This document shows, piece after piece, positions 53,307 through 59,699 of a stretch of 64,000 nt of DNA. The stretch lies in contig CAJCIC010000042.1 of assembly GCA_903970185.1 (NCBI GenBank), positions 1 through 64,000 of the forward strand. Reading direction: 5' to 3'. The stretch is from Gammaproteobacteria bacterium (GTDB taxonomy: Bacteria > Pseudomonadota > Gammaproteobacteria > Burkholderiales > Burkholderiaceae_D). The position numbers and the translations under genes are program-made. A model generated the notes under the pieces. The model did no database searches and had not been told where the DNA came from. It was given only the letters and a program-made list of their open reading frames with translations. Within the stretch, counting starts at the first letter, position 1; the number at the start of each line of letters is the position of its first letter.

Positions 53307-53798
53307 TCAGGAGAAGCGGCTGCTGTAATCCGTGACGGTCGGCGGGTAGCAATAGCGCTTGTTGCCCATCATGAATTCGCCCTTGTCGTCAATGCACCCG
53401 AGCTCATCGGGCCGCGTCGCCAGGCCGAGGTCGACACCCTCGCAAAGCCATCGTTGGCTGATGCTGATGCCGTGAGTGGAAGTCAGTCCGGGGAATATTT
53501 GAGCGGGGCCGGAAACACGCATTGACGATTCGATGTTTGGATCAGTGGTAAGCCCGGATGTTTGGTCCATTTCCCGGATTCCGTCATCGCATTGAGGGCC
53601 GAAAGGCTCATGGCAAGCCCGATCGCAGCGCCGGTACTCTGATGCCGCGAAAGGTTCCAGGGTCAGTGGCGCTCGATGCGATGTCCGCGCAGCGCGAGCT
53701 GGGTGACGATTCTTCTCTGCGTGCCAGGCAAATAGGGGCGTCTGCTGAAATCGGAGGACGCCCCGCCTTACGCGCGCAATTTGGCGAACGGAACGCAA
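53307..53798 (-). CDS. Hypothetical protein, possibly only C-terminal half genuine
   Basis: A 163-codon open frame ends just past the tRNA. Its last 45 codons (CEGVDLGLATRPDELGCIDD, then GEFMMGNKRYCYPPTV) use GC-rich third positions and look like real protein with conserved-looking Cys residues. The first half is Arg/Ala-rich and overlaps the PEP-CTERM gene end by 31 bp, so the true start is unclear; a GTG or ATG near 53590 may be used, or this may be a gene remnant. I recognise no family. Confidence 0.3.
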   Translation of the reverse strand: MRSVRQIARVRRGVLRFQQTPLFAWHAEKNRHPARAARTSHRAPLTLEPFAASEYRRCDRACHEPFGPQCDDGIREMDQTSGLTTDPNIESSMRVSGPAQIFPGLTSTHGISISQRWLCEGVDLGLATRPDELGCIDDKGEFMMGNKRYCYPPTVTDYSSRFS

Positions 53799-54469
53799 TC
53801 CGACTCCTTGCTCTTTTGTCGGAGTCCGATGAGCCCTAAAATGCCGAGTCCCATCAGCATTGCGATATATGTCGAAGGTTCTGGAACGGCTGATACAGGG
53901 GAGACTGACGTTATTCTGAAGGCACCCACAGTCATCGCACCGGTAGGGTAGACGAGGGATTCGAAGCGACCGATTTCAACTGTCTGTGGAAAGATCGGAA
54001 AACCGGCCGCCGAATATGTAGGAGCTGAAACGTAATTCTGGAATACGAAAAGCGAGGTGAAATAGGAACCATTTTGATAAACGTCGTCTGTATACCCATT
54101 GAAGAGTCCAGGGACCCCGACCGCGTCGTGGTAGTTCTGAAACGAGGTTGGGGAACTGGAAAACGTCAACGCTCCCACCTGAAACGAATCGGAAAACGGT
54201 TGTATGCCGGGCGGGGGTCCGTAGAAAGAGCCGGTCAATGCCCTGATCGACCACCCCGCCGGGTCCCCGATAGTTCCGCTGGTCGTCGTCCCAGACGAGG
54301 GCGTGTAATCGAATGTGAAGCTGCCGGTTACAGGAGTTCCATCGGCCACAGCGTTAGGGCCACTCCAACTGGTCGTGTATCCGGAGAAATCATACGTTGC
54401 GGTCTGCGCCTGCGTTGAAGTTGACGCCGCCAACAGCCAAAGTGCAAGTGCCAAGTTAACAAGCCTCAT
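53768..54469 (-). CDS. PEP-CTERM sorting-domain exported protein
   Basis: This 233-aa exported protein has a signal peptide (LVNLALALWLLAASTSTQAQ), a beta-rich body (TYDFSGYTTSWSGPN, SFTFDYTPSSGTTTSG), and a PEP-CTERM signal: VPEPSTYIAMLMGLGILGLI followed by GLRQKSK. PEP-CTERM proteins are cleaved by exosortase (EpsH/XrtA) and usually relate to exopolysaccharide. No exosortase is in the window. The start has a strong AGGAGAGG 5 bp upstream. Unusually, 11 or so residues (ESDCVPFAKLRA) follow the basic end of the signal, where most members stop. Codon use is less GC-rich than neighbours. Confidence 0.9.
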   Translation of the reverse strand: MRLVNLALALWLLAASTSTQAQTATYDFSGYTTSWSGPNAVADGTPVTGSFTFDYTPSSGTTTSGTIGDPAGWSIRALTGSFYGPPPGIQPFSDSFQVGALTFSSSPTSFQNYHDAVGVPGLFNGYTDDVYQNGSYFTSLFVFQNYVSAPTYSAAGFPIFPQTVEIGRFESLVYPTGAMTVGAFRITSVSPVSAVPEPSTYIAMLMGLGILGLIGLRQKSKESDCVPFAKLRA

Positions 54470-56469: not shown

Positions 56470-57870
56470 TCAGAGTCCCTTCCAGTGCTCAACGAAGACC
56501 TGCGTCGAGAGGACAAATCCGATGACCACATTGACAGCCACGCCCGCCGAAAATGCCCAGAAGGGGCGGCCCGCAGCGCCCGCCAACTGCTTGAACCGCG
56601 TGGTCAAGCCGATGCTAAAGAAGCAGAAAATAAACGCCCATGTGCGCAGGTTCTTAAGCGGCGTTACAAGCTCAGGGTTGACGACCTTGTTGAAATCAGC
56701 GAACGCTTCGCCAGAAGTGGCATAGGTGATGATTGCGGAGGCGATCAAAAACCCGAACACGAACTTCGGAAAGCGCGCCCAGATCTGCCGGGCATCAGCG
56801 GGCGTGCGCACGCCATCTTCGCTTTGCCACCGCGTGGTTGCAATGAAGGCAAGCACAAACGCCCAGATGCCAATCCAGGCATCGCGGCCGATTACCTTCA
56901 TGAGCGTGAAGGAGGTCAACGCGGCCTGCGAAGTGCCACTGATGTTGGCGACGTGGCCGGCATAGCCACTGTAGGTTTGTGCCGCGGCAAATCCCGCCGC
57001 GTCAGCAAACTCGGACGTACCGATCCACGCCCCGGCAACGCCCGTGGGCAAGGCGAGTTCGCGCGACACCAGTGGCAGCACGAAGATCATCACAATGGCC
57101 CAGAAGATCACAAGCGTGATGGCAATCGGTGCATGTTCGCGTTTGGCACCGACGGCGCCGGCGATGGCGATCGCGCCCGACACACCGCACACCGCGCCAC
57201 CTGCGCCAAGCACTGCCGACAAGCGCCGGTCTAGGCCAAGCCGGGTACCCACGAAGAAGATCACGAGGAACGTGATGATCGAGACGATCCCGGCTTGGAC
57301 AATCGCCACGGGGCCGGCCCAGATGATCAGGCTAAACGGCAGGGTTGCACCAAGAAGCACGATCCCGGTCTTGACATAGAACTCGACGCGAAAGCCGCTA
57401 TCCATCCATTGCGGCAATCCAATCAGGTTGGAAATGATGAGGCCAAGCAGCAATGCAACCAACGGCGGCTCGAGGTTGTAGTAGCTCGCCTGATCCCATT
57501 GCCCGAGCGCGAAGATCGGAACTGCAACGACATAGACGAACGTGAACGAACGCAGGAAGTTGAAAAGTGGAATCTCCAGAGACCATGTAGCAAGCCCGAA
57601 GAGCGCAGCGAAAAGCACGTAGAGCGCAAGATATTGCTGCCAATGGGCCTCAAACTGCGGCACCAGTTCTGCGACATGGGTCCATTTGGCAGGAGCAATG
57701 CTAAGCCACTTGATGCTCGAGCCGGCCTCAAACCAGATCGTCGCGACGATGACAAGGCCCACACCAATCCAGATGGCCCACAAGTCTTCGTTATCGAAAA
57801 GGCCACGCCAACTCAGCTTCTCGCGCGAAGCGGCGAAAGGGGTGTCAAGGGTCGAAGAGTGGTCGCTCAT
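56470..57870 (-). CDS. YeiH family (UPF0324) putative sulfate exporter
   Basis: A 466-aa integral membrane protein of the Cons_hypoth698/YeiH family. About 11-12 TM helices follow a 35-residue N-terminus. Family blocks are GLIISNLIGLPQWMDSGFRV, EFYVKTGIVLLGATLPFSL, LGAGGAVCGVSGAIAIAG and GRPFWAFSAGVAVNVVIGFV. Members are annotated as sulfate or sulfur-compound exporters with little experimental support. It carries an extended N-terminal region with additional TM segments compared with the 340-aa E. coli YeiH. The ATG at 57870 (MSDHSSTLDTPF) is used; the frame extends to 57972 without membrane character. Confidence 0.85.
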   Translation of the reverse strand: MSDHSSTLDTPFAASREKLSWRGLFDNEDLWAIWIGVGLVIVATIWFEAGSSIKWLSIAPAKWTHVAELVPQFEAHWQQYLALYVLFAALFGLATWSLEIPLFNFLRSFTFVYVVAVPIFALGQWDQASYYNLEPPLVALLLGLIISNLIGLPQWMDSGFRVEFYVKTGIVLLGATLPFSLIIWAGPVAIVQAGIVSIITFLVIFFVGTRLGLDRRLSAVLGAGGAVCGVSGAIAIAGAVGAKREHAPIAITLVIFWAIVMIFVLPLVSRELALPTGVAGAWIGTSEFADAAGFAAAQTYSGYAGHVANISGTSQAALTSFTLMKVIGRDAWIGIWAFVLAFIATTRWQSEDGVRTPADARQIWARFPKFVFGFLIASAIITYATSGEAFADFNKVVNPELVTPLKNLRTWAFIFCFFSIGLTTRFKQLAGAAGRPFWAFSAGVAVNVVIGFVLSTQVFVEHWKGL

Positions 57871-58169
57871 GGCATTGATTCGGCGCAGCTGGAAAAAAGT
57901 CTCGGCAACGATAGCCTCATTGCGCTGAATCCCAAATCGACAAATTTGCATACGCATATAGGCAAAAAGCATAAGCGCCCGCCCATTTTGCGGATTTTTC
58001 CGGCAATAGCCGCCCTCGCTTGCAAGCCATGCCCTAGTGCCACGGCGTGCCGTCGACGTGAAAGCCGGTCAAGGCGAGCGCGAGGGCAGGTCGAGGGCAA
58101 AGAATATCTTTACGGTCGAAAAGGCAGCGTTTCGCCTGCGCGAAACGCGTACTCGCTCGCCATCAAGCG
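57871..58169. other. Intergenic region between YeiH-type transporter and Deg9-like protease
   Basis: 299 bp between the end of the protease gene and the start of the transporter, both minus strand. I see no gene. It must contain the transporter promoter, but no clean -35/-10 pair stood out. No T-rich hairpin was found for ending the protease transcript. Confidence 0.4.
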
Positions 58170-59699
58170 CTAGTGTCCGTTCCAGACCGCCATCACGTCA
58201 GGCGTTCCTTGCGCGCGAATGCCGTTGTCATTGAGCAGATCCTCGGTCGCAGCGACCATTTCCTTGCGCGGAAAAACCAGGGTTTCCGCGCCACGCTGGG
58301 CGAATGCGATGGTCACGTATTCGTCCTTGTTGTCGCGCAGCAGCTGAACCAAGTGCTTCAGATTCTTTACTTCGATGCCGTTGATCGATTTTACGGCCTG
58401 GCCTGCCGGGTTCGAATAATTTCGAGCGAGATTGTGCGGCAGGAATGGAGCCCCGATGATGACGATCTGCTCGCCAGGAAAACTGGGCGTATCACCCATG
58501 CGAATCGCCGCCGGACTTCCAAGGAACATGGAAATCCCCAGCGCCTGGGCGTGAGCCGCCGCAAACTGTTGCGTCGCCGTCGTAAAGACGATAGGTCCGT
58601 AAATGAAATAGCTGGGATATCCCCCAAGGAGGTCCGGCACGAGCATGGTATGGGGGTCGGTGACCGGCAGCGAGATGGCGATCTGCTTGCCATTGCGCAG
58701 CACGGTCAGCGGCACCTTGCCGTCGCGTGCGATGTTTTGCACTGCGTATTGAAAACGCAGGCGCAGGCCATTACTCGTGATCATGCCCTGATCGTCGATA
58801 GGCAGATCGCCAATCTTGGTGATGATGTCCCAGTCCTTCAGTGGCGTGTCCTTGCCATAGGCGTGCGTGACAAGAATGCCCTCGGTGGTCTTGTCCACCT
58901 TGAGGCTCGAACGCAACGCAGGATTCTCGAGGGTTTGCAATTCGTCGTACATGGCAGGCTTGCTGTACGGCTGGCCGTGCTCGGCCTTGTCGAGAAACAG
59001 ATTTACCTCTTCGCACGGAATGATGTAGCCGATGTTCTGAACGCCATTGCCAACAAGGCTCGAGAACGTAATGCCGATCAGGTCACTGCCAACCACCGCC
59101 GCACCGCCGCTATTGCCAGGATTGATGGCCGCGTCGATCTGGATTCTCAAACCGGAAACGAGCGCCGAATAGTTGGCGAACTCGATGCGCGAGATGATTC
59201 CCTTGGTGATCGAGAGATTCGAGCCCCCCGTGGGATAGCCGTAGGTCATCACCGTGTCCTTGACATCGGGGATGCCCTTTGCGCAATTGAGGGACGGGCG
59301 TTTGTCAAAGAAGCTGTCGTCATCGACCTTGAGCAGGGCGAGATCGATGCCTGGAGCAATCGAGACGACGGTAGCCGGGGCCTTGTCGCCACTCTGATTG
59401 CCTTGCACCTCAATCTGGCTCGCGTAGGTCACAACGTGAGCATTGGTGAGAATGTAATGGCCCGGGATGATGACACCGCTTCCGGTCACATCGTGCGGCG
59501 CCTGTTTGGTCCATGGCTTGGACATATCAGGTTCGCGTTTCGTCGAGAACACCTTGACGACCGCGTTCTCGACCATCACGGACGCAGGCGGCGCCTCCTG
59601 GGTGGCAGTCGCAGGCTCCTCGGCCCAGGCCCCGGAAACCCACACGAGCGCAAGTACACAATGAACTGCAAGCGACACAAAGCGTGAAAAAGGCACCAA
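58170..59699 (-). CDS. Secreted Deg9-like trypsin-family serine protease
   Basis: A 509-aa protein with a signal peptide (FVSLAVHCVLALVWVSGAWA). The trypsin-like triad is complete: His in YILTNAHVVTYASQ, Asp in APGIDLALLKVDDD, Ser in AINPGNSGGAAVVG. PDZ-like regions follow. The blocks TYGYPTGGSNLSITKGIISR, QIDAAINPGNSGG, NIGYIIPCEEV, and the late YPSYFIYGPIVFTTATQQF look by eye like plant DEG9/DEG10 rather than E. coli DegP, DegQ or DegS. It starts with TTG at 59699 (GGGA 8 bp upstream), or with the adjacent GTG at 59696. A 504-codon open frame on the opposite strand is its mirror. Confidence 0.85.
   Translation of the reverse strand: MVPFSRFVSLAVHCVLALVWVSGAWAEEPATATQEAPPASVMVENAVVKVFSTKREPDMSKPWTKQAPHDVTGSGVIIPGHYILTNAHVVTYASQIEVQGNQSGDKAPATVVSIAPGIDLALLKVDDDSFFDKRPSLNCAKGIPDVKDTVMTYGYPTGGSNLSITKGIISRIEFANYSALVSGLRIQIDAAINPGNSGGAAVVGSDLIGITFSSLVGNGVQNIGYIIPCEEVNLFLDKAEHGQPYSKPAMYDELQTLENPALRSSLKVDKTTEGILVTHAYGKDTPLKDWDIITKIGDLPIDDQGMITSNGLRLRFQYAVQNIARDGKVPLTVLRNGKQIAISLPVTDPHTMLVPDLLGGYPSYFIYGPIVFTTATQQFAAAHAQALGISMFLGSPAAIRMGDTPSFPGEQIVIIGAPFLPHNLARNYSNPAGQAVKSINGIEVKNLKHLVQLLRDNKDEYVTIAFAQRGAETLVFPRKEMVAATEDLLNDNGIRAQGTPDVMAVWNGH

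What the first reader, a model, noticed from the sequence alone, without database searches (positions are those of the whole stretch)
58170..59699. Bacterial homologue of plant DEG9-type proteases, exported
The block order (YGYPTGGSNLSITKGIISR, QIDAAINPGNSGG, NIGYIIPCEEV, PPSYF-like YPSYFIYGPIVFTT) resembles plant DEG9/DEG10, nuclear or organellar proteases, more than DegP, DegQ or DegS. A signal peptide places it in the periplasm. Bacterial members may show where the plant family came from.
Basis: partly seen in the sequence, partly recalled or inferred. Interest (0 to 1): 0.55.

Follow-up and report, generated by a model that had tools for sequence, protein, structure and literature searches.

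The report
Periplasmic protease resembling plant Deg2/Deg9
This bacterial gene encodes a probably exported protein-cutting enzyme built like the plant proteases Deg2 and Deg9 rather than like the usual bacterial DegP; its nearest kin are in Verrucomicrobia and Planctomycetes, from which this lineage probably received it.

Summary
Window 58170-59699 (-) encodes a 509-residue Deg/HtrA serine protease with intact triad, signal-peptide-like start, one PDZ and a PDZ_3 domain. Its best solved relatives are AtDEG2 (1.4e-66) and AtDEG9 (2.2e-57), nearly full length; DegP, DegQ and DegS score far lower. The predicted fold (pLDDT 93.9) fits Deg9/Deg2 over all domains.

The origin claim is open. AtDEG2 and AtDEG9 pair with each other; free trees set them beside six Verrucomicrobiota rows (bootstrap 84-92), while the window lies in another clade with Planctomycetota, Verrucomicrobiota and Massilia's family. 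Joining that clade to the plants is not rejected (AU p 0.43-0.55). PDZ_3 genomes: 90/240 Verrucomicrobiota, 30/179 Planctomycetota, 117/392 of the window's family, 3/398 Pseudomonadota. Verdict: new member of a known kind, probably a periplasmic quality-control protease.

The parts
58170..59699 (-). CDS of a 509-aa Deg/HtrA serine protease with PDZ_3 domain (TTG start, TAG stop)
59622..59699 (-). signal-peptide-like residues 1-26, possible cleavage AWA|EE
   Evidence: read by eye from the translation; best 12-residue Kyte-Doolittle mean 2.5, a measure that proved unspecific; no predictor run
58974..59576 (-). trypsin-type protease domain, about residues 42-242
   Evidence: Pfam PF13365 residues 73-202 and PF00089 residues 58-232; model
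59436..59438 (-). catalytic His88 codon
   Evidence: invariant in the 8 rows of A1; the three positions read HDS in 118 of 134 aligned rows
59343..59345 (-). catalytic Asp119 codon
59109..59111 (-). catalytic Ser197 codon in NPGNSGG
58665..58943 (-). first PDZ domain, about residues 253-345
   Evidence: PDZ_2 E 0.015, below the curated cut-off; confident part of the model, which aligns to Deg9 5il9 over 452 residues
58206..58619 (-). second PDZ domain of type PDZ_3 (PF17815), residues 361-498

Best explanation
It is a Sec-exported, ATP-independent serine endoprotease of the Deg2/Deg9 (PDZ_3) type. After removal of the signal peptide it would act in the periplasm, most likely as a quality-control protease: the trypsin-like domain (H88-D119-S197) cuts unfolded or damaged chains, PDZ1 presents substrate, and the PDZ_3 domain packs against the rest to build or lock the oligomer, as is reported (recalled) for the plant enzymes. 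It works beside the organism's classical HtrA paralogues. Shown: the gene, triad, domain order, fold model, and separation from DegP/DegQ/DegS. Inferred: export, activity, oligomer, substrates. The lineage probably got the gene from a Verrucomicrobiota-like donor.
For: Full-length match to AtDEG2 and AtDEG9; PDZ_3 above its cut-off; triad intact; AlphaFold model pLDDT 93.9, best PDB matches Deg9 5il9 (Z 39.2, 452 aligned, rmsd 2.4) and Deg2 4fln (Z 38.5) against Z 27.7 for the best DegP chain; one PDZ_3-family clade of 43 rows, 100/100, apart from 23 classical HtrAs. Three other Trypsin_2 genes in the same genome, two of which match only the protease-PDZ1 part; one PDZ_3 match in the genome. 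Donor: the four family rows (100/100) fall inside a group of Verrucomicrobiota rows (11 rows 100/99; 10 rows without L240 96/89; 6 rows 97/89). PDZ_3 in 90 of 240 Verrucomicrobiota and 30 of 179 Planctomycetota genomes, but 3 of 398 Pseudomonadota, own genome included.
Against: No activity, localisation or oligomer was measured. The start is TTG or GTG and no ribosome-binding site was tested. PDZ1 is below Pfam's cut-off. No neighbour of the window's gene clustered with genes of 24 sampled loci, so context tells nothing of its substrate. The crude hydrophobicity measure passed 1 of 4 controls that are not known as exported (visC) and failed exported E. coli DegP, so it hardly bears on export. 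The window row does not fall in the clade of the rest of its family, as one simple transfer would predict; that single clade is 11-14 log units worse but not rejected (AU p 0.08). The gene's composition shows no recent transfer.
Confidence: 0.72

Rival explanations
1. It is an ordinary DegP/DegQ/DegS-type HtrA and the likeness to plant Deg is only that of the shared trypsin fold.
For: TIGR02037 (degP_htrA_DO) is its best NCBIfam hit, 2.4e-35 over residues 44-473, and DegP/DegQ align with protease and PDZ1. Forcing the window row beside the four outgroup rows (E. coli DegP, DegQ, DegS and own paralogue L002) costs 15 log units with AU p 0.041, a weak rejection; that test also moves the root.
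Against: The NCBIfam scores are far below cut-off (122.3 against 416.2 bits for degP_htrA_DO). No PDZ_3 match in the 14 control genomes. One 100/100 clade with AtDEG2/9 on the protease domain alone, with 23 classical HtrAs present. Fold match over all domains at low rmsd only for Deg2/Deg9 chains among the rows listed.
Confidence: 0.04
2. The window's clade is the true bacterial sister of the plant Deg2/Deg9 group, and its place outside in free trees is a long-branch effect.
For: Trees with clade C plus AtDEG2/9 held together are about as good: log-likelihood 2.1 lower, 1.6 higher and 0.7 higher; AU p 0.43, 0.55, 0.54.
Against: Free trees put the plants with six Verrucomicrobiota rows outside clade C: 92/94, 88/98, 84/95, and 94/89 on the protease domain alone.
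Confidence: 0.2
3. It is a regulatory or processing protease with one or few substrates, as DegS is, and not a general quality-control protease.
For: Patchy presence: 117 of 392 family genomes, 9 of 44 genera, with classical HtrA paralogues in the same genome, so it is not the only housekeeping HtrA.
Against: No partner gene conserved nearby in the loci sampled; the start looks like a cleavable signal peptide by eye, whereas DegS keeps a membrane anchor (recalled).
Confidence: 0.24

Closest known systems
Arabidopsis DEG2 (4fln), chloroplast stroma
   Same: Best sequence match, 1.4e-66 over residues 42-503, same domain order; Z 38.5 over 453 residues at 34% identity
   Different: Plant, organelle-targeted (PMC3473262 and PMC4130198, passages); pairs with AtDEG9 and not with the window protein
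Arabidopsis DEG9 (5il9), nucleus
   Same: 2.2e-57 over residues 29-494; best fold match, Z 39.2, 452 aligned, rmsd 2.4, tied with DEG2
   Different: Nuclear by GFP tagging (PMC4130198, passages); the bacterial protein has a signal-peptide-like start
Bacterial PDZ_3 proteases, labelled 'S1C family serine protease' in the two plasmid records opened
   Same: Same domains; 39 rows of the window's own clade are 50-58% identical to it
   Different: Other clades are 26-32% identical; in one, an intact protease often stands beside a second copy without the triad
E. coli DegP, DegQ, DegS
   Same: Protease domain and first PDZ, triad
   Different: No PDZ_3 match in the E. coli control; separate in the tree; fold match weaker over the whole length

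Membership tests
Plant-type Deg clade II (DEG2-4, DEG9-13; protease-PDZ-PDZ) | trypsin-type domain with intact His-Asp-Ser | tested here: met
   H88, D119, S197
Plant-type Deg clade II (DEG2-4, DEG9-13; protease-PDZ-PDZ) | two PDZ domains, the second of type PDZ_3 | tested here: met
   PF17815 6.5e-18 above cut-off; PDZ1 below cut-off by Pfam but present in the model. The clade's two-PDZ order is from PMC3473262 (passages); that the second is PDZ_3 rests on the DEG2/DEG9 alignment
Plant-type Deg clade II (DEG2-4, DEG9-13; protease-PDZ-PDZ) | common clade with plant members, apart from DegP/DegQ/DegS | tested here: met
   43 rows 100/100 with 23 classical HtrAs present (the program calls the bootstrap rough); only AtDEG2 and AtDEG9 stand for plants
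Plant-type Deg clade II (DEG2-4, DEG9-13; protease-PDZ-PDZ) | oligomer closed through the PDZ domains | not testable with these tools
   monomer modelled only; the oligomers of DEG2 and DEG9 are recalled, not read here
DEG9 in the strict sense | groups with DEG9 to the exclusion of DEG2 | tested here: not met
   AtDEG2 + AtDEG9 at 100/100 and SH-aLRT 100
DEG10 | closest to DEG10 | not testable with these tools
   no DEG10 sequence was available
DegP/DegQ/DegS | NCBIfam subfamily or equivalog cut-off | tested here: not met
   degP_htrA_DO 122.3 of 416.2 bits, DegS 82.9 of 422.95, DegP 68.9 of 720, DegQ 60.5 of 756
DegP/DegQ/DegS | grouping in a tree | tested here: not met

The most novel reading that the evidence does not exclude
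The plant Deg2/Deg9 group descends neither from the plastid nor from the mitochondrial ancestor but from a bacterium of the Planctomycetes-Verrucomicrobia group, in which the PDZ_3 proteases are diverse and often present; the window protein is a periplasmic side branch of the same family, handed on to Burkholderiales from the same source.
Probability: 0.3. Interest if true: 0.6.

Novelty: new member of a known kind. Interest (0 to 1): 0.36.

Why it matters
In the one plant-wide Deg tree seen here (PMC3473262, passages) the only bacterial sequences were three from Synechocystis; an earlier study that it cites included distant taxa and was not read. This work finds a large bacterial PDZ_3 family, frequent in Verrucomicrobiota and Planctomycetota, that holds the nearest bacterial kin of AtDEG2/9 among those sampled. 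That makes the origin of this plant group testable with existing genomes and offers bacterial enzymes for studying what the PDZ_3 domain does.

Tried and rejected
Viral contigs: 64 loci, best E 1e-12, none over more than part of the query; not followed. Plasmids: 42 records with a match, 3 of them covered by 80% or more; two of these were opened.

Neighbourhood: the last 14 kb of the window and 24 loci of relatives, two of which are the same Massilia region, with crude gene calling of my own. No gene of the window clustered with any of the other loci. In 10 of the 25 loci the protease itself was not found in the protease cluster, I think because longer antisense frames displaced it, so this is no basis for a strong negative.

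Foreign origin by composition: the gene has GC 57.8 (window 60.8) and GC3 72.4; 12 of 14 other genes have GC3 71-80, two have 59 and 65. No sign of recent transfer. The neighbouring yeiH-like gene has 75% identical relatives in 2 of 35 other genomes searched, both of the same family, so that side of the contig looks native.

Export by hydrophobicity: 114 of 130 rows pass the mark, but so does 1 of 4 controls (visC), and exported E. coli DegP fails; not used as evidence.

One or two transfers into the window's family: not settled (AU p 0.08). Two AU tests did not finish (clade C with outgroup; window with L015) and were not repeated.

Rows dropped: one search used 47 of the 67 rows (out: six long branches named by the program, four further second tandem copies, nine rows thinned out, own paralogue L001). 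One search left out 7 of those 47 and added 16 of the 21 rows. One search left out the 4 outgroup rows and one long Planctomycetota row (L269). The 134 rows include 5 classical HtrAs, AtDEG2, AtDEG9 and the two stray rows L011 and L028; the genome of L028 has no PDZ_3 match.

Literature: PMC2490706 and PMC2394758 (chlamydial genes in plants) were searched for Deg and protease terms, passages only; no Deg2/Deg9 entry was seen. PMC6411480 (passages) does not name Deg2 or Deg9. PMC3473262 (passages) says that an earlier study found Deg proteases of Archaea, Bacteria and Eukarya in four clades; whether bacteria stood in clade II there is not known to me, so bacterial clade II members may be in print already. 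Searches listed no paper on bacterial Deg2/Deg9-type proteases that I recognised, but they used few word combinations in an open-licence library; one search returned only the best 10 of 5,630 and the best 15 of 292.

Full report
What is there. Pfam finds Trypsin_2 (8.1e-21), Trypsin (2.1e-14) and PDZ_3 (6.5e-18) above their cut-offs and a PDZ_2 below it. The triad H88, D119, S197 is intact. The first 26 residues look like a signal peptide by eye; no predictor was available, and the crude hydrophobicity measure was not specific: 114 of 130 rows passed, but also 1 of 4 controls, while E. coli DegP failed.

Which Deg type. phmmer against PDB sequences (best 60 of 101 shown) gives AtDEG2 (228.6 bits, residues 42-503) and AtDEG9 (198.3 bits, 29-494) first; AlgW, DegP, DegQ and DegS follow at about 49-73 bits, mostly over protease plus first PDZ. 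A predicted structure of the mature protein, built on an alignment of 62 proteins, has mean pLDDT 93.9 and pTM 0.89. Foldseek ranks Deg9 and Deg2 chains, or their chimera, in places 1 to 8 (TM by query 0.63-0.86, five of them 0.84-0.86); places 9 to 30 are DegQ and DegP chains at 0.43-0.49. VIA-align gives Z 39.2 (5il9) and 38.5 (4fln) against 27.7 for the best DegP chain.

Tree test. On the protease domain alone, with 23 classical HtrA rows (E. coli DegP, DegQ, DegS, own paralogue L002 and 19 rows), the 43 rows of the PDZ_3 family form one clade at 100/100; the program warns that the bootstrap had not fully settled. Held beside the four outgroup rows, the window row gives AU p 0.041, a weak figure, but that constraint also moves the root within the family.

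Where the window protein sits. Its clade (C, 100/100) holds Planctomycetota rows on one side and, on the other, an 11-row group (100/99) of Verrucomicrobiota with the window and four rows of its family. In one search one long Planctomycetota row (L269) is basal. The family rows fall inside the Verrucomicrobiota: 10 rows without L240 at 96/89, 6 rows with L239 and L242 at 97/89; the same groups have 95/76 and, with L239 alone, 93/49. The window's family is Massilia's: the match in G536, same family, has the contig, coordinates and score of that in the genome of L017, Massilia atriviolacea. The other family rows form a 100/100 clade without the window; holding the window with them is 14.0 and 11.4 log units worse, AU p 0.079 and 0.081, so one or two transfers cannot be told apart. 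Composition shows no recent transfer.

Where the plants sit. AtDEG2 and AtDEG9 pair at 100/100. Free trees put the pair with six Verrucomicrobiota rows (L226, L232, L248, L249, L250, L254): 92/94, 88/98, 84/95, 94/89 (protease domain), SH-aLRT 96. Trees that join clade C and the plants are about equally likely: AU p 0.43, 0.55, 0.54; in two of three tests the held tree was slightly better than the free one. The order of the deep branches is therefore unresolved. With only two plant proteins and no cyanobacterial sampling beyond one control genome, neither the donor nor the direction is shown.

Distribution of PDZ_3 (PF17815), genomes with a match at E <= 0.001, centre genome included: own family 117 of 392, 9 of 44 genera; relatives, one genome a genus, 5 of 60; Pseudomonadota 3 of 398, being the own genome, G180 and a marginal one, G069; Verrucomicrobiota 90 of 240, phylum of an Opitutaceae MAG that is itself positive; Planctomycetota 30 of 179, phylum of a Gemmatales genome; Acidobacteriota 12 of 199; Alphaproteobacteria, class of Hyphomicrobium, 1 of 190, a partial match; phylum of a Kapabacteria MAG 1 of 198, that genome itself; named controls 0 of 14 in each of these calls. 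Genomes are one per species and partly MAGs, which may hold foreign contigs. Phylum and class names rest on the record title of the centre genome's locus.

How it likely works. From the Deg/HtrA family in general: ATP-independent endoprotease, PDZ domains for interaction (background in PMC3473262, passages). That DEG2 and DEG9 form closed oligomers through PDZ contacts is recalled, not read here. With a signal-peptide-like start, classical HtrA paralogues in the genome and no shared neighbours in the loci sampled, a periplasmic quality-control role is the best guess; a narrow regulatory role is the main rival.

Novelty. The protein is a new member of a known kind: plant clade II Deg architecture in bacteria. 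The two opened plasmid records name such genes 'S1C family serine protease'. The wider result, a PDZ_3 family frequent in Verrucomicrobiota and Planctomycetota as the nearest sampled bacterial kin of AtDEG2/9, was not seen in the papers listed by the searches, within their limits.

Noticed in passing
L020, L021, L026, L159, L214, L243, L244, L247, L253, L255, L256, L274, L277: Tandem PDZ_3 pairs: an intact protease beside a second copy whose triad positions are not H-D-S. Of 134 aligned rows 16 lack HDS, and 13 of these lie beside an intact copy on the same stretch. [quoted passage not shown] homology to Deg7 was not tested.
   Followed up: partly
window 58173-59687 (+): A 504-aa open frame antisense to the protease gene, probably a by-product of codon bias in a GC-rich gene.
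   Followed up: no
window 53768-54469 (-): 233-aa protein ending in a PEP-CTERM-like tail (VPEPSTYIAMLMGLGILGLIGLRQ; motif recalled), with lower GC3 (59) than the neighbouring genes.
   Followed up: no
window 56470-57972 (-): 500-aa YeiH-like membrane protein (name recalled); 75% identical relatives in G020 and G010 of the same family.
   Followed up: partly
L011 (G069): A 591-aa frame with a marginal PDZ_3 match (27.1 bits) on a long branch between the family and the classical HtrAs.
   Followed up: no
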